A stretch of DNA of 64,000 nucleotides, from the NCBI RefSeq assembly GCF_017313785.1, contig NZ_JAFLNL010000001.1:124001-188000 (forward strand). The letters run 5' to 3'. This DNA is from Flagellimonas aurea. Its GTDB lineage: Bacteria; Bacteroidota; Bacteroidia; Flavobacteriales; Flavobacteriaceae. Shown one piece after another: positions 9,325 through 14,616 of the stretch. The translations under genes and the position numbers were made by a program. Position 1 is the first letter of the stretch. Each line of letters begins with the position of its first letter. The notes beneath the pieces are model-generated. The model made no database searches. It was not told where the DNA came from and saw nothing but the letters and a program-made list of their open reading frames with translations.

Positions 9325-11397
9325 ATGAAAAAATATTTAGTTTTAGCTGCGCTGTCCCTGTTCATGACAGCCACATACGCACAGATAGACAGAAGCACGC
9401 CCCCAGAACCAGGGCCTGCACCAAAAATAAATTTAAAGGAACCTGCCCGTTTTGAGCTAAAGAATGGCTTAAAGGTACTCGTAGTGGAAAATCATAAGTT
9501 GCCACGGGTCCGAATCCAGTTATCCATAGACAACCCACCTATTTTGGAGGGGGACAAAGCTGGAGTTTCCGTCCTAACCGGAAGCATGCTGGGCAAAGGA
9601 TCTAAAAATGTTCCAAAGGATGATTTTTATGAAGAAGTGGACTTTTTAGGGGCCAATATTTACATCGGTGAGCAAAGCGCCTTTGCAAGTTCCCTATCCA
9701 AATATTTTCCAAGGGTGCTCGAGTTAATGGCAGATGCCGCTATCAATCCGGACTTTCTCCAAGAAGAGTTTGAAAAGGAAAAGGAAAAGGTGATTACCGG
9801 AATCAAATCGGAAGAAAAGGATGTTTCTGCAATAGCCGATAGAGTTCAAGCAGCTTTGGCTTATGGAAAAAACCATCCTTATGGCGAATTCATGACCGAG
9901 GAAACGGTAAACAATGTTTCCCTAATGGATGTGGAGCAGTTCTATCGCTCCTATTTTGTTCCCGCTAACGCCTATTTGGTGGTTATCGGCGATGTCGAGT
10001 TCGATACCGTTAAAGAATTGGTCACAGAAGCCTTTACCCCTTGGTCCAAAGCAGTACCTCCATCGTTCAGTTATTCGGACCCAAAAGACGTGCAGTATAC
10101 ACAAATCAACTTTGTTGATGTTCCCAACGCTGTTCAATCCGAGGTTGCGGTAGAAAACATTACCAACTTAAAAATGAAGGACGAGGATTATTTGGATGCT
10201 CTTTTGGCCAACAGAATATTAGGTGGTGGCTCACAAGCTCGTTTGTTCAAAAATTTAAGGGAGGACAAAGGGTACACCTATGGTTCGTATTCTGGAATCC
10301 GGGCCAATAAATTCAGCCCAATGCGATTCAATGCCTATGCGCAAGTTAGAAATGCCGTAACCGACAGCTCAGTGGTCGAAATCTTGAAAGAAATCGATAA
10401 AATGACCTCTGAGCCGGTATCCGATGAAGAATTGGCCAATGCCAAGGCCAAATATGCCGGTAGTTTTGTAATGGCTTTGGAAAAACCTGAAACAGTTGCA
10501 GAATACGCATTGAACATTGAAACAGAAAGTCTTCCAAAAGACTTTTACGAAACGTATTTGGAACGTTTGGATGCCATCTCGAAAGAAGATGTACTCAACG
10601 CCTCCAAAAAATACTTTTCGACCTCCAATGCCCGCGTAGTGGTCACCGGAAAAGGAACGGACGTTCTGGAAAATTTGGAAAAGGTGACCTTTAACGGTAA
10701 AACTGTTCCCGTTCTTTACTATGACAAATATGCCAACAAAACGGACAAACCCGAATATGGGGCTGCAATTCCCGAAGGAATAGATGCCAACGCAGTTTTG
10801 GAAAGTTACATCGAAGCCATTGGGGGCAAAGCAAAATTGGATGCCGTGGAATCATACTCAATGATGGCAGAAGCCGAAATGCAAGGCATGAAATTGGAGC
10901 TTGAAATGAAGAAAACAACCCAAGACCAGTTTATGCAAAACATAAAGGTGCAGGGCAATTCCATGCAAAAACAGGTTTTGGATGGCGACTCCGGATATAT
11001 GGTAATGCAGGGTCAACGCAAAGACCTTTCCGCTGAAGAGGTTGCAAAAATCAAAGAAGAATCAGCAGCTTTCCCTGAGTTGAACTATCTGGCAGTTGGA
11101 GATGTGACCCTGGAAGGAGTAGAGCAAGTTGATGGCAAGAAAGCCTACAAACTCAAAATTAGCGATGAAAAAACCGCTTTTTATGACATGGAAACAGGTC
11201 TAAAAGTACAGGAAATCGTTACCCAAGAAGTGCAAGGTCAGCAAATGACAAGTACCATTGGCTATGGAGACTACCAAGAAGTTTCCGGTATCAAGTTCCC
11301 ATTTAAGTTGATGCAGAGCATGGGACCACAGAACATGGAGTTTATTGTGAAAGAAATCAAGGTGAACGAAGGCGTTGAAGCATCTGATTTCAAATAA
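9325..11397 (+). CDS. M16 family peptidase-like partner subunit, active site lost, with C-terminal extension
   Basis: 690 residues from the ATG at 9325, chosen because it starts a signal peptide (MKKYLVLAALSLFMTATYAQ) and abuts the previous stop. Residues about 45-470 are M16-like (LENGLKV-type start, Y-G-x-x-HPYG, RLFKNLREDKGYTYG), but the position of HxxEH reads GVSVLTGSMLGKGS, so no zinc ligands remain. Residues about 490-690 form an extra beta-rich domain (EAIGGKAKLDAVESYSM, FPFKLMQSMGPQN) resembling lipoprotein-carrier-like domains. It most likely forms a complex with the active M16 subunit just upstream. Confidence 0.9.
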   Translation: MKKYLVLAALSLFMTATYAQIDRSTPPEPGPAPKINLKEPARFELKNGLKVLVVENHKLPRVRIQLSIDNPPILEGDKAGVSVLTGSMLGKGSKNVPKDDFYEEVDFLGANIYIGEQSAFASSLSKYFPRVLELMADAAINPDFLQEEFEKEKEKVITGIKSEEKDVSAIADRVQAALAYGKNHPYGEFMTEETVNNVSLMDVEQFYRSYFVPANAYLVVIGDVEFDTVKELVTEAFTPWSKAVPPSFSYSDPKDVQYTQINFVDVPNAVQSEVAVENITNLKMKDEDYLDALLANRILGGGSQARLFKNLREDKGYTYGSYSGIRANKFSPMRFNAYAQVRNAVTDSSVVEILKEIDKMTSEPVSDEELANAKAKYAGSFVMALEKPETVAEYALNIETESLPKDFYETYLERLDAISKEDVLNASKKYFSTSNARVVVTGKGTDVLENLEKVTFNGKTVPVLYYDKYANKTDKPEYGAAIPEGIDANAVLESYIEAIGGKAKLDAVESYSMMAEAEMQGMKLELEMKKTTQDQFMQNIKVQGNSMQKQVLDGDSGYMVMQGQRKDLSAEEVAKIKEESAAFPELNYLAVGDVTLEGVEQVDGKKAYKLKISDEKTAFYDMETGLKVQEIVTQEVQGQQMTSTIGYGDYQEVSGIKFPFKLMQSMGPQNMEFIVKEIKVNEGVEASDFK

Positions 11398-11414
11398 GCA
11401 TATATTTTAAATAC

Positions 11415-11445
11415 AAAAAGGGGCGCCAATGGCACCCCTTTTTAC
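11415..11445. terminator. Bidirectional terminator between convergent genes
   Basis: The stem aaaaagggg / ccccttttt continues as gcc/ggc after one mismatch, around a three-base loop. It has A-runs on one side and T-runs on the other, so it can end both the M16 operon and the convergent receptor gene. Confidence 0.85.
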
Positions 11446-11456
11446 TTTTTACAGAT

Positions 11457-13568
11457 TTAAAAACTGTATTGTGCAAAAGCGGTCAAGTTTCTACCCGGAT
11501 CATTGATGGGTACTCTACCATAGTCCGCTTGGTTCACAAAAGAGAAGTTCAAATGATTATTGTAGGTCTCATCAAAAATGTTGGATGCTGCAATTCCTAA
11601 CGTAAAATGCTCAAAAGGTTTTGTCCCAAAACGCAAATCCATAACCCCATAACCACCCGTTGTTTGCTCTCCAAAGGAGAGTGCTATATCGGATTGTTTT
11701 GAAGTAAGGGTATATGTCGCGCTAGCCCAAATTGTTTCTCTCTCAATACTTAGATTGAAACGGGTAACCAAAGGTGGAGTCAACGGCAGGGATTCATCCA
11801 AGTCCTGATTTTTTGCATACACATAGGACACCTCTGTTTTAAACGCAAAATCTTCCAAGAAGGCCAATTCCCCAAAAACTTCAAACCCTGTTTTGTAGGC
11901 ATCATTTAAATTGGTAAATCTTTTTACGTCTGTAGGCGCTGCCATTGGCATATACTTTTTATCCAATGATGGGTCTATCACAGGAACAATATAATTGTCA
12001 TAGATAGAATAATACACAGAAGCCCCATAATCCAAACGGTTGAAAGCATATCCCTCAAAACTGGTATTAGCTTTAACCCCCAATTCAAATTGATTGTTCA
12101 CCTCGGCATCCAAATAAGGGTTGCCCACATATTCGTACGGATCCTGACCTGCTGTAAAATGGTTGATAAATCTTTCGATCATATTGGCGGAACGCACTCC
12201 TCTACCATAGGCCAATTCAAACAAAAGATTGGATGTAGCCAAATATTTAAATGATGCTGTTGCACTAAAGTTATGCTCTGTTCTTGTATCCAAATCAGGA
12301 TATTCAGCAACAAAATCATCATCTGGCGCATCTATTATGGATCGTACCATATCGTACCTCGCACCAACATTCAACAAAAGCTTTTCTGATAACGGATATT
12401 TACCTTCTATAAATGCTCCATAATCATCAATTTGTGAGTCTTGCCATACCCCATCAACAAACTCCATGGGAGTGAGCAGTAAATCACCGTTCATATTCCT
12501 TTTTACCAAACGTGTTCTATTTCCCGTTCTTCCCACCGAAAATGCATCCAACCCAGTGTAGAGTTTTAGGTCTTGAATAGGTCTCCACTCAAGTTCCACT
12601 CGACCACCAACAGTTAGGGCACCCACTTCCGATACCGCCTCTGTCATCATAAAAGACGGTCTTAGTTCATTGGTCATTACATGGTCTACATTGGAACGAT
12701 AAACCTTTGCGCTCAATGCTTTTAATCCATCAGAAATAGTGTCTAGCTTATAATCAACAGAGAGCACATTGCTATCATCTATTTCAGTATCCATGGGTAA
12801 TCCAGCATGCAACACATCCCTTCCAAAGGATTGTCGAAACCCAAGTTGGATTCTTTGGTTCTCTGTTGGGCTATAGCCTACCTGAATCCCATAATCGGTA
12901 CTCTTAAAGGAGGAAGGCACTTCGTTTCCATCACCGTCCTCATAATTCCCAAAATCACGAAATCCGAAATTAAGGTTCACATCGAACTGTTCTCCAACAT
13001 ACTTTAGGTTGGCAAAACTTGTAATGGCATTCCCGTTGTTCTCTCCACCAAAATTCACCTTACCATGATATCCTCTTTCTTGTTTTTCAACTTCTTGAGT
13101 CACCAAATTTACAATGCCACCAAAGGTGGGGCCGTATCTAAAGGTATATGGTCCTTTAACCACTTCTACCCGTTCTATCTCTTCTGGAGTTACATGAGTG
13201 GTAATGGGGTCCATCCGGTTAGGACAGGCGTGCATCACCTTGGTTCCTCCATTAAATTGAACATTGAGTTGCTCATATTGAGAAGCCCGAAAAGATGGGT
13301 CTATGGCATAATTACCGCGTTTAATCAGGCTAAATCCATTGATATCTTTAAAAAGATCCGCCACATTTTTTGATTGAACAATTTTCTTCTCCGGCTCACT
13401 TTTGAACGTAGAAAAAACTGGATCTATTTTTCTTTTTCCTTCAACCAGAACCTCATCCAATTGTACCGGTTTTTTTGCTAGGGAATCTTGCGCATTTGAA
13501 ACTTGCGCGTAGGACACAGTGGTCCCTAAAAGCAAAACACAAAGTTTTGCCAGTGCACTTTTATTCAT
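11457..13568 (-). CDS. TonB-dependent receptor with OprC/NosA-type copper ligands
   Basis: 703 residues from the ATG at 13568 (MNKSALAK, then a signal peptide ending YAQ); an upstream in-frame ATG at 13604 would only add a charged leader. The plug carries HACPNRMDPITTH: C115 and M119 form CxxxM, and H296-V-M298 in the barrel forms HxM. Those four ligands and the C-to-H spacing of about 181 match the copper site known in Pseudomonas OprC (spacing 180). The protein has no carboxypeptidase-like domain. The small Cys/Met-rich gene upstream on the same strand supports metal uptake. The receptor class is certain; copper specificity is a strong inference. Confidence 0.88.
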   Translation of the reverse strand: MNKSALAKLCVLLLGTTVSYAQVSNAQDSLAKKPVQLDEVLVEGKRKIDPVFSTFKSEPEKKIVQSKNVADLFKDINGFSLIKRGNYAIDPSFRASQYEQLNVQFNGGTKVMHACPNRMDPITTHVTPEEIERVEVVKGPYTFRYGPTFGGIVNLVTQEVEKQERGYHGKVNFGGENNGNAITSFANLKYVGEQFDVNLNFGFRDFGNYEDGDGNEVPSSFKSTDYGIQVGYSPTENQRIQLGFRQSFGRDVLHAGLPMDTEIDDSNVLSVDYKLDTISDGLKALSAKVYRSNVDHVMTNELRPSFMMTEAVSEVGALTVGGRVELEWRPIQDLKLYTGLDAFSVGRTGNRTRLVKRNMNGDLLLTPMEFVDGVWQDSQIDDYGAFIEGKYPLSEKLLLNVGARYDMVRSIIDAPDDDFVAEYPDLDTRTEHNFSATASFKYLATSNLLFELAYGRGVRSANMIERFINHFTAGQDPYEYVGNPYLDAEVNNQFELGVKANTSFEGYAFNRLDYGASVYYSIYDNYIVPVIDPSLDKKYMPMAAPTDVKRFTNLNDAYKTGFEVFGELAFLEDFAFKTEVSYVYAKNQDLDESLPLTPPLVTRFNLSIERETIWASATYTLTSKQSDIALSFGEQTTGGYGVMDLRFGTKPFEHFTLGIAASNIFDETYNNHLNFSFVNQADYGRVPINDPGRNLTAFAQYSF

Positions 13569-13598
13569 TTTTGATTTGTGTTTAAGATTATACAAGTT

Positions 13599-13616
13599 CG
13601 GCAATGTGTATTGCCG
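13599..13616 (-). other. Intercistronic hairpin before the copper-type receptor
   Basis: A perfect 7-bp inverted repeat, cggcaat / attgccg, with a 4-base loop lies in the 63-base gap between the small Cys/Met protein and the receptor ATG. On the transcribed minus strand no T-run follows, so it is not a normal terminator. It may protect or limit the downstream message. Confidence 0.5.
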
Positions 13617-13631
13617 CTTTTTCAGTAAATC

Positions 13632-14048
13632 TTAAACCATGGGTGGCTTTATAAGCGTATCACTAAAGTGATACGAATAAAAATCTGTGTAATAGAATGG
13701 GTTCGTCTCATTCTCCTTGCTACTTGGTAAATTGTAACTAGGCATCTCCATAAAAAACACCAAAACATCCTCCCAACCAATCACCGGCATGGGTTCATCG
13801 TCTTCCGCTTGGGCACGGAGCATTTGCATCAACATACATTTACCGTTACAATTAAGTTCCGGTTTGTCCTTGTTTTCACAGAGTTGTTCTATAAACCCCT
13901 CCCTATCGAGACTATAATAAACATACATGGAAGAAAAGCGCAGGTTGCTTATCATAAGCAAAAGAATGAAAAGCGAAGAAAATCCAACCCGCCTGGGTAA
14001 AGTATGTGAAGATTTATCCAATACTTTCTTAGTTCTTATCCAAAACAA
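13632..14048 (-). CDS. Small anchored Cys/Met-rich protein linked to the copper-type receptor
   Basis: Up to 138 residues; the ATG at 14048 is used, but a start nearer the hydrophobic segment cannot be excluded. A basic N-terminus is followed by one hydrophobic helix (about 22-40), then an extracytoplasmic part with LCENKDKPELNCNGKCMLMQML: C57, C67 and C71 with M72, M74 and M76. Proteins with this Cys-x9-Cys-x-Gly-Lys-Cys pattern occur beside metal receptors in Bacteroidota, but I know no defined function. The ligand set suits copper(I). It precedes the OprC-like receptor by 63 bases, probably in one transcript. Confidence 0.8.
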   Translation of the reverse strand: MFWIRTKKVLDKSSHTLPRRVGFSSLFILLLMISNLRFSSMYVYYSLDREGFIEQLCENKDKPELNCNGKCMLMQMLRAQAEDDEPMPVIGWEDVLVFFMEMPSYNLPSSKENETNPFYYTDFYSYHFSDTLIKPPMV

Positions 14049-14081
14049 TCAGCGAATTTAAGAACACCTAAGATTCTATTA

Positions 14082-14097
14082 TGTGACAAAAGTCACT
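14082..14097. promoter_or_regulatory. CRP/FNR-like palindrome in a divergent promoter region
   Basis: The sequence TGTGA-caaaag-TCACT contains the perfect inverted repeat GTGAC-aaaa-GTCAC (14083-14096). It fits the CRP-family pattern TGTGA-N6-TCACA except for the last base. It lies between the copper-type operon (minus) and a small lipoprotein gene (plus), 34 bases before the former's ORF start. Confidence 0.5.
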
Positions 14098-14153
14098 TTT
14101 ATTATTTATTTGAATATTTAGCTTTAATCCCTCATTTTACTGTCCCAAATAGT

Positions 14154-14161
14154 TAAATTTG
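14154..14161 (+). promoter_or_regulatory. Candidate -7 element for the small lipoprotein gene
   Basis: TAAATTTG matches TAnnTTTG exactly and ends 20 bases before the ATG at 14182, which predicts a short leader. No clear TTG lies at the usual -33 spacing. Confidence 0.4.
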
Positions 14162-14181
14162 AAGACCTAATTTTATTCACC

Positions 14182-14616
14182 ATGAAAAGAGTTTTTTCAC
14201 TCCTAATCTATACTGTTTTGTTTTTGAGCTTCTCCTGCAAAGAGGAGAAAAAAGCACCTGAAGGTTCATCACAAATGGAAGAGGTTATGGCCATCCACGA
14301 CGAGGTGATGCCTAAAATGAGCACGATAGGCAAATTGGTCGGAGAACTTAAGCCAAAAGTAGATTCCACCGAAATGGGCCAAAAATATGAAGTGGCCATG
14401 AAGGACCTTCAAGATGCCAACACCGCAATGATGGATTGGATGAAAGATTTTGGCGATCGCTTTAACCATGAGGAAATCTTGAACGGCAAGGAACTCTCCG
14501 AAGAAAAACAACAATGGCTCGATGAGGAAGAAGAAAAGGTAAAAGTGGTGAAGGAAAAAATCAATGGTAGTATTGAACGTGCCCAAGCCCTATTGACGAA
14601 GGATACCGTACAATAA
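14182..14616 (+). CDS. Small helical lipoprotein of unknown function
   Basis: 144 residues. The lipoprotein signal (MKRVFSLLIYTVLFLSFSC, lipid on C19) is followed by an acidic, almost entirely helical body rich in Glu, Lys and Met. It has coiled-coil character at about 30-80 and 105-140 and the segment MMDWMKDFGDRF in the middle. I do not recognise a defined family; similar short lipoproteins in Flavobacteria have only been named loosely. It is convergent with gldD, two bases from its stop, and shares an upstream region with the copper-type operon, so joint control is possible. Confidence 0.75.
   Translation: MKRVFSLLIYTVLFLSFSCKEEKKAPEGSSQMEEVMAIHDEVMPKMSTIGKLVGELKPKVDSTEMGQKYEVAMKDLQDANTAMMDWMKDFGDRFNHEEILNGKELSEEKQQWLDEEEEKVKVVKEKINGSIERAQALLTKDTVQ

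What the first reader, a model, noticed from the sequence alone, without database searches (positions are those of the whole stretch)
11457..14048. OprC-type copper receptor paired with an undescribed Cys/Met-rich anchored protein
The receptor has C115-x3-M119 in the plug and H296-x-M298 in the barrel, the four-ligand set of OprC, with almost identical spacing. The gene just upstream encodes a one-helix protein whose exposed part holds C57, C67, C71 and M72, M74, M76. Together they look like a copper capture and hand-over unit. The small protein has no function I know of.
Basis: partly seen in the sequence, partly recalled or inferred. Interest (0 to 1): 0.65.

Follow-up and report, generated by a model that had tools for sequence, protein, structure and literature searches.

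The report
Copper-sensing leader of OprC receptor gene
The small cysteine protein encoded just before a bacterial copper-uptake receptor looks less like a metal carrier than like a built-in sensor: while it is still being made, it probably decides whether the receptor gets made, and relatives of it stand in front of copper-related genes in many Bacteroidota.

Summary
The sequence observation holds. The receptor (11457-13568, minus) carries C115-x3-M119 and H296-x-M298, which align on OprC's copper ligands C143/M147/H323/M325; OprC is its best solved relative by sequence and fold. The pairing is real: 28 of 28 such receptors in 149 family genomes, and 79 of 80 named loci, have this small gene upstream. 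The hand-over reading is not the best one. The small protein belongs to a family found in 153 of 395 Bacteroidota genomes. In 63 aligned members only C-x-N-x7-C-x3-C and a Pro-Pro shortly before the stop codon are invariant, at near-constant spacing over variable sequence. The family also precedes MbnP-type and other copper-related genes. The stop codon lies in one arm of an mRNA stem, kept by some compensatory changes, whose other arm precedes the receptor's start codon. This is the anatomy of the copper-responsive leaders CruR (Bordetella) and CutF (Rhodobacter), but it is not DUF2946 and lacks RAPP. Most likely, ribosomes stall at Pro-Pro when copper is scarce, keeping the stem open so the receptor is made; copper on the cysteines ends this. 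Stalling, copper binding and direction are untested. New variant of a known kind.

The parts
11457..13568 (-). OprC-like TonB-dependent receptor CDS (ATG start at 13568, stop codon included)
13212..13226 (-). C115-x3-M119, plug copper ligands (equivalent to OprC C143/M147)
   Evidence: coordinates by counting codons from 13568
12675..12683 (-). H296-x-M298, barrel copper ligands (equivalent to OprC H323/M325)
   Evidence: coordinates by counting codons from 13568
13632..14048 (-). small leader ORF: N-terminal helix, cysteine motif, variable low-confidence stretch, Pro-Pro; likely start TTG 14021 (inferred)
13836..13880 (-). C57-x9-C67-x3-C71, invariant cysteine motif, proposed copper sensor
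13641..13646 (-). Pro135-Pro136 codons, proposed arrest site (KPP-Met-Val-stop)
13628..13637 (-). 5' arm of the outer mRNA stem (GUUUAAGAUU): last sense codon, stop codon and four more bases
13580..13589 (-). 3' arm of the outer mRNA stem (AAUCUUAAAC), 11 nt before the receptor ATG
13599..13616 (-). inner hairpin CGGCAA-loop-UUGCCG with compensatory changes in the genus
14084..14095 (.). TGACAAAAGTCA inverted repeat upstream of the leader, candidate CRP/FNR-type operator (name by recall)
14182..14616 (+). divergent small lipoprotein-like gene with conserved H-D/E-x2-M-x2-M and M-M-x-W-M; related genes lie inside some other leader-headed gene rows

Best explanation
The small gene is a copper-responsive leader ORF (nascent-chain sensor) that controls the OprC-type receptor behind it. 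The chain is inserted in the inner membrane by its N-terminal helix, and the C-x9-C-x3-C stretch emerges in the periplasm while the ribosome translates the last codons (63-66 residues between third Cys and Pro-Pro in 76 of 79 named leaders). When periplasmic copper is scarce, the ribosome stalls at the Pro-Pro before the stop codon. By the geometry published for CruR (Pro-Pro in the P and A sites) its footprint would then cover much of the 5' arm of the intergenic stem, so the region before the receptor's start codon stays open and the receptor is made. When copper binds the cysteines, arrest ends, the ribosome leaves, the stem closes and the receptor falls. Shown here: anatomy, conservation, linkage, and evolutionary maintenance of the stem in the genus. 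Inferred: arrest, membrane topology, copper as ligand, sign, and translation initiation rather than transcription as the controlled step.
For: Family: invariant C-x-N-x7-C-x3-C and PP in 63 of 63 members; PP in the last 15 residues in 62 of 63 versus 10 of 658 control ORFs (8 of 159 small ones). Named loci: 79 of 80 have the gene, 77 of 79 with PP in frame. 43 distant members: 42 with PP in the last 15 residues. Position: among 63, the first recognised downstream gene is an OprC-type receptor (28), MbnP (14), a Met/His-rich barrel (8), a second CxxxM/HxM receptor with a YtkA protein (6), a receptor with PepSY_TM (3), the small lipoprotein (3) or another (1); CruR relatives head a similar list (PMC9426467). 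RNA: RNAalifold on 30 genus loci gives an outer stem holding the stop codon plus an inner hairpin; 96.3% of cells paired, 25 cells with two-sided changes versus 7.4 in shuffles (0 of 500), slid structures at most 52.1% paired. Wider: stop-codon pairing 0.51 in 49 pairs versus 0.28 in 153 controls, p 2.7e-8; masking a stalled ribosome raises start-region accessibility by 0.094 versus 0.016, p 1.1e-6, and by 0.14-0.40 in the 30 genus loci. The trimmed small protein models as a helix plus low-confidence remainder (pTM 0.29).
Against: No expression, copper-binding or stalling data. The end is F-H/R-PP, KPP and others (one EPP in the genus), not RAPP. The cysteine-to-PP distance (63-71) exceeds the 45 reported for CruR and CutF. 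The number of pairs with two-sided changes, 6, is less striking (28 of 500 shuffles reach it), and the outer stem itself has only 2 such pairs of 9; the inner hairpin has 4 of 6. The outer stem is not universal: 20 of 49 family pairs beat shuffles at 0.05 (10 of 153 controls do), only 6 of 21 in the OprC group, and in a second clade of 13 species RNAalifold recovers only the inner hairpin. L203 lacks the gene; L183/L184 (one Lacinutrix genome, two leaders alike as far as read) have PP out of frame; L223 has 29 residues after PP. L273 lacks motif and terminal PP, L274 lacks the motif. In distant genomes some receptors behind the leader do not show the OprC ligand set.
Confidence: 0.77

Rival explanations
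1. One reading: a membrane-anchored copper carrier that takes metal entering through the receptor and hands it on. Pro-Pro and the intergenic stem would be incidental.
For: Invariant cysteines outside the predicted membrane helix, tight linkage to receptors.
Against: Sequence between the cysteine motif and the C-terminus is variable while its length is nearly fixed; PP near the stop codon is invariant; the stem includes the stop codon; no soluble domain is modelled with confidence (low-confidence model); the same family precedes modules with different products.
Confidence: 0.1
2. Same device, opposite sign (CutF-like): copper strengthens stalling and so raises expression of the downstream gene.
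For: CutF works this way through a stem hiding the next ribosome-binding site (PMC9973294, abstract, sections 10-12 and passages read).
Against: CutF's target is a multicopper oxidase. Here many targets look like uptake or supply genes (OprC-type, MbnP-type), for which the CruR sign makes sense (inference).
Confidence: 0.12
3. Same sensor, but the controlled step is transcription: a ribosome parked at Pro-Pro shields the intergenic RNA from Rho, as proposed for CruR; the stem is secondary. (A sub-form of the best explanation, not exclusive of it.)
For: CruR uses Rho-dependent termination between first and second gene (PMC9426467 abstract). Not every family member has the stem.
Against: The stem is maintained in the genus, hard to explain if it is secondary. 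No Rho test was possible.
Confidence: 0.3
4. The nascent chain senses something other than copper, such as disulphide formation, zinc or export status.
For: Three cysteines can also form disulphides or bind zinc; Bacteroidota leaders with a C-terminal proline upstream of sec genes are reported (PMC10987492, passages).
Against: Many partners are copper-related by family: CxxxM/HxM receptors, MbnP, YtkA.
Confidence: 0.1

Closest known systems
CruR (Bp2923, DUF2946/PF11162) of Bordetella pertussis
   Same: First gene of copper operons, export helix, Cys motif, C-terminal Pro-Pro before the stop; relatives head TBDT/OprC-type, PepSY_TM and MbnPH-like operons (PMC9426467: abstract, sections 9 and 10, passages).
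   Different: No DUF2946 match in 63 members; C-x9-C-x3-C instead of CXXC; F-H/R-PP, KPP or other XPP instead of RAPP; spacing 63-71 instead of 45; stop-codon stem described here.
CutF of Rhodobacter capsulatus and the CutF-like set
   Same: Exported nascent chain, CxxxC, C-terminal PP, stem-loop before the next gene. The authors' final set of 5,334 CutF-like proteins includes Bacteroidota (40% normalised, otherwise 19%), so this family may be among their clusters (PMC9973294, section 10).
   Different: Targets here look mostly like uptake or supply genes; expected sign opposite. Their cluster motifs are in supplements I could not open, so overlap is unknown.
RAPP/RGPP arrest peptides
   Same: C-terminal Pro-Pro arrest; CruR arrest shown by toeprint with the two Pro codons in P and A sites (PMC12992588, passages).
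   Different: No RAPP/RGPP here. That survey reports RAPP/RGPP leaders of the TonB class in Gram-negatives generally, and those before copper-related factors as missing from groups such as Bacteroidota; so RAPP-type leaders may exist in the phylum beside this family.
OprC of Pseudomonas aeruginosa (TonB-dependent copper transporter)
   Same: Same four ligands; best PDB match by sequence (E 4.8e-48) and fold (first 28 Foldseek rows).
   Different: 22-24% identical in those fold alignments; below the TIGR01778 cut-off; Bacteroidota; different kind of leader (P. aeruginosa oprC is preceded by a cruR homolog, PMC9426467).

Membership tests
OprC / TIGR01778 TonB-dependent copper receptor | CxxxM in plug and HxM in barrel aligned with C143/M147/H323/M325 | tested here: met
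   (28 of 28)
OprC / TIGR01778 TonB-dependent copper receptor | TIGR01778 curated score 472.45 bits | tested here: not met
   250.9 bits, best NCBIfam hit; hence 'OprC-like', not a TIGR01778 equivalog
OprC / TIGR01778 TonB-dependent copper receptor | ligands close enough to share one copper ion | tested here: inconclusive
   overall fold matches OprC but the plug ligand loop is below pLDDT 50
OprC / TIGR01778 TonB-dependent copper receptor | binds and imports copper | not testable with these tools
   none
CruR (DUF2946) | PF11162 sequence profile | tested here: not met
   no PF11162 match listed for 63 members at E<=1 (HMMER filters on)
CruR (DUF2946) | CXXC and RAPP about 45 residues apart | tested here: not met
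   C-x9-C-x3-C and XPP 63-71 residues apart
CruR (DUF2946) | gene directly upstream of copper-related genes on the same strand | tested here: met
   that it is the first gene of a transcript was not tested
CutF-like leader (broad, rule-based set) | <150 aa, PP within last 15 residues, export signal, same-strand gene within 1,000 nt | tested here: met
   window protein; family. A membrane helix was seen in a model; no signal-peptide program was run
CutF-like leader (broad, rule-based set) | mRNA stem before the next gene that the ribosome could open | tested here: met
   genus; partial elsewhere
Arrest peptide | ribosome arrest at the C-terminal motif | not testable with these tools
   none; motif and position only

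The most novel reading that the evidence does not exclude
Bacteroidota use their own, non-DUF2946, RAPP-less nascent-chain sensor family as a portable copper switch: one leader type placed in front of OprC-type receptors, MbnP-type, YtkA and other modules, often with a stem that starts at the leader's stop codon, so that a large part of the phylum's copper supply is set by ribosome stalling.
Probability: 0.58. Interest if true: 0.68.

Novelty: new variant of a known kind. Interest (0 to 1): 0.58.

Why it matters
It gives a concrete, testable control element in front of an OprC-like receptor in a phylum for which my few searches found nothing on such control, assigns a likely role to a large unnamed protein family, and offers that family as a marker for finding copper-related gene rows. 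It also turns an apparent 'metal carrier' into a probable regulatory sequence.

Tried and rejected
Pfam and NCBIfam for the small protein: nothing usable. Rfam on 11300-14300: three sub-threshold matches only. DUF2946 as the family: 5 of 198 Bacteroidota genomes match PF11162 at E<=0.001, 2 over the cut-off; at those five places I read proteins with RAPP or RGPP ends, a different sequence type. Ligand distances from an AlphaFold2 model: the plug loop has too low confidence. Outer stem in a second clade by alignment: only the inner hairpin came out; a third clade was aligned but not folded. Genome-wide enrichment of the TGAC-N4-GTCA repeat: none (32 sites versus 30 in the backward control), so its link to the OprC operon rests on conservation only. 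The search for related loci with the diverse small-protein alignment failed for lack of conserved stretches; the receptor alignment was used instead. Paper searches: no paper with 'arrest peptide', 'flavobacter' and 'copper'; none with methanobactin, MbnP, MbnH and Bacteroid; one, on cyanobacteria by its listing, with 'flavobacteri', 'TonB-dependent' and 'copper starvation'.

Rows left out of counts: I fetched 60 regions, chosen to include every receptor-linked place and otherwise the better scores; the remaining, mostly weaker, places were not fetched, so the shares of partner types are not a fair sample. Members were found in 59 of the 60 regions (none kept by my ORF caller in L068); 62 members there plus the window make the 63 at E<=1e-3; one further candidate at E 0.55 was dropped. 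Searches kept 49 of 63 pairs (gap 40-130 nt). Of 34 close genus orthologs listed, the 30 with loci were used. The window itself is among the 63, the 28 and the 30. The partner label is the first recognised same-strand gene in the next few.
Full report
OBSERVATION. The best NCBIfam hit is TIGR01778 'TonB-copper', but at 250.9 bits against a cut-off of 472.45. An AlphaFold2 model (mean pLDDT 73.9, pTM 0.75) finds OprC chains in the first 28 rows of Foldseek; its ligand loop (113-123) is below pLDDT 50, so distances could not be judged. The ligand set is present in 28 of 28 receptors of this group (window included) and in 6 of 6 of a second receptor group, but in 0 of 4 of a third. The closest named relatives are Flagellimonas/Allomuricauda.

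THE PAIR. In 149 genomes of the family, 78 have the small protein and 28 have the receptor at E<=1e-60; in all 28 the small gene lies upstream on the same strand (coordinates; gene order), in one case (L056) about 1.1 kb away with two short ORFs called between. In the genus, 66 of 71 genomes have some family member and 34 a close ortholog (56% identity or more); in 30 of 30 of these examined the receptor starts 60-68 nt after the small gene's stop. In 80 named loci brought in by the receptor, 79 have the small gene upstream. The pairing is far beyond chance, though the pair itself is missing from many genomes of the genus and family.

THE SMALL FAMILY IS LARGER THAN THE PAIR. Sixty-three members (62 in 59 of 60 fetched regions, plus the window) precede different genes. 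The first recognised one is the OprC-like receptor (28), MbnP (14, followed in most by a di-haem peroxidase-type gene and a barrel), a Met/His-rich barrel with a PF13557 match (8), a second CxxxM/HxM receptor with a YtkA-like protein (6), a receptor with PepSY_TM (3), a small lipoprotein (3) or another (1) (Pfam run on one representative of each of eight groups; 'MbnH' for the di-haem gene is my recall, Pfam says CCP_MauG). The choice of regions favoured receptor-linked places, so these shares are not a census. In 40 regions from outside the family, 43 members precede, by best blastp hit to the groups above, OprC-type receptors (13), third-group receptors (8), MbnP (7), YtkA (5), a barrel (2), the lipoprotein (1), unassigned genes (6, one of them a second leader) or nothing in the stretch (1). 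Of the 13 labelled OprC-type, 9 match at E<=1e-80; a motif check finds CxxxM and HxM in 7 of 13 (one split over two frames), HxM alone in 3, neither in 3; in the YtkA rows the receptor has both in 5 of 5; the third-group receptors have neither, and in the distant rows PepSY_TM was not recognised behind them. An HMM of the 63 finds 153 of 395 Bacteroidota genomes (67 of 171 genera). No Pfam or NCBIfam family covers it.

WHAT IS CONSERVED. Invariant in 63 of 63: C-x-N-x7-C-x3-C and a Pro-Pro near the end. PP lies in the last 15 residues in 62 of 63 (the other has 14 residues after it), against 10 of 658 control ORFs and 8 of 159 small control ORFs. Third cysteine to PP is 63-71 residues. In the named loci 77 of 79 have PP in frame, and 76 have 63-66 residues between third cysteine and PP (one of these, L223, reads on for 29 residues); the sequence between is poorly conserved. 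The two without PP (L183, L184, one genome) show the PP codons in another frame. Of 43 distant members 42 keep PP and 41 the cysteine pattern. The model of the trimmed small protein has helices at 2-27, 29-36 and 51-61 and low confidence elsewhere (mean pLDDT 66.9, pTM 0.29).

THE INTERGENIC RNA. In the window the last sense codon, stop codon and next four bases (GUUUAAGAUU, 13637-13628) can pair with AAUCUUAAAC (13589-13580), which ends 11 nt before the receptor's AUG; inside lies a second hairpin, CGGCAA/UUGCCG. RNAalifold finds these two helices (9 and 6 pairs) in 30 genus loci, with two-sided changes at 6 of 15 pairs. In counts on that structure, 96.3% of cells pair, against 90.5% in column shuffles; 25 cells carry two-sided changes against 7.4 (0 of 500 shuffles reach it), but the number of pairs with such changes, 6, is reached by 28 of 500; sliding the partner by 1-3 columns drops pairing to 24.2-52.1%. 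The outer stem has two-sided changes at 2 of 9 pairs and 97.3% of cells paired; the inner hairpin at 4 of 6 pairs and 94.7%. Shuffles ignore relatedness, so the slide control and the individual pair changes carry the argument. Across genera, mean pairing of the stop-codon region with downstream sequence is 0.43 in 63 members against 0.25 in 189 control gene pairs (p 1.2e-6), and in a stricter version 0.51 in 49 against 0.28 in 153 (p 2.7e-8; 20 of 49 against 10 of 153 beat shuffles at 0.05). Masking bases up to one past the stop codon, as a stalled ribosome would, raises accessibility of the start region by 0.094 on average against 0.016 in controls (p 1.1e-6), from 0.46 to 0.79 in the window, and by 0.14-0.40 in the 30 genus loci. 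In some species the 5' arm pairs with the start codon itself (L033, L042, L215). Against: the OprC group alone is weaker (6 of 21 at 0.05), and in a second clade of 13 species only the inner hairpin is recovered, with two-sided changes at 5 of 5 pairs.

COMPARISON WITH KNOWN SYSTEMS. CruR of B. pertussis heads a copper-repressed TBDT operon; its CXXC and C-terminal RAPP lie 45 residues apart, PP mutation abolishes and Cys mutation deregulates expression, and its relatives head OprC-type, PepSY_TM and MbnPH-like operons (PMC9426467: abstract, sections 9 and 10, passages). CruR arrest occurs with the two prolines in the P and A sites (PMC12992588, passages). CutF of R. capsulatus has CxxxC, a C-terminal PP and a stem-loop hiding the next ribosome-binding site, with copper increasing expression; the authors' enlarged set contains Bacteroidota (PMC9973294: abstract, sections 10-12, passages). 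The family here works like these but fails the DUF2946 and RAPP tests. The RAPP/RGPP survey reports TonB-class leaders in Gram-negatives generally and copper-factor leaders missing from groups such as Bacteroidota; PF11162 matches 5 of 198 Bacteroidota genomes. I could not open the CutF supplements, so I cannot say whether this family is one of their clusters; I therefore claim a new variant, not a new kind.

MECHANISM. Shown: the linkage, the conserved cysteine and Pro-Pro elements at near-fixed spacing, and, in the genus, a maintained stem that a ribosome at Pro-Pro would disturb. Inferred: arrest at Pro-Pro in low copper, relief by copper on the cysteines, closing of the stem, less receptor. 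The CruR-like sign is chosen because many targets look like supply genes. Whether initiation or Rho-dependent transcription is the controlled step remains open.

SURROUNDINGS. Upstream of the leader lies TGACAAAAGTCA (14084-14095). TGAY-N4-RTCA occurs upstream of 19 of 28 OprC-linked leaders and 4 of 6 of the second receptor group, but 1 of 14 MbnP-linked and 0 of 8 barrel-linked ones, against 24 of 511 controls; 61 of 79 named loci have it. This suggests a transcription factor, by resemblance (recall) of the CRP/FNR kind, specific to the receptor operons. In the own genome one such site lies beside a CRP-type regulator, a metal ATPase and a fused COX1-FixO (cbb3-type) oxidase gene, but sites are not enriched genome-wide. 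The divergent lipoprotein-like gene (14182-14616) has H-D/E-x2-M-x2-M and M-M-x-W-M in 57 of 57 hits from the genus, named and family loci, and both in 1 of 4 hits from distant loci.

Noticed in passing
window 14182-14616 (+): Divergent small lipoprotein-like gene with conserved H-D/E-x2-M-x2-M and M-M-x-W-M; found in 29 of 29 genus loci and 20 of 20 Flagellimonas-group named loci, not in the other 60 named loci as held, and inside leader-headed gene rows of other genera. Candidate copper-binding lipoprotein; no Pfam family over its cut-off.
   Followed up: partly
window 14084-14095: Inverted repeat TGAC-N4-GTCA upstream of the leader, frequent before OprC-type operons but not before MbnP-type ones.
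   Followed up: partly
L293 1930-1941 (own genome C27:112429-112440): Same type of repeat next to a CRP-family regulator, a PF12156 metal ATPase and a fused COX1-FixO gene; may tie receptor expression to a cbb3-type oxidase, but could be chance.
   Followed up: partly
L070, L073, L086, L246: Two leader genes in tandem, in three cases separated by the lipoprotein gene: possibly two switches in one operon.
   Followed up: no
L183 and L184 (Lacinutrix jangbogonensis): Two leaders in one genome, alike as far as read, whose Pro-Pro codons lie in another frame: decay, sequencing error or frameshifting.
   Followed up: no
L230-L234: Rare Bacteroidota proteins with weak DUF2946 matches, a His/Cys-rich stretch and RAPP or RGPP ends: possibly a second leader type in the phylum.
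   Followed up: no
L061, L062, L090: Receptor plus PepSY_TM genes behind the leader, without the CxxxM/HxM site, in the same order as the Bordetella operon.
   Followed up: no
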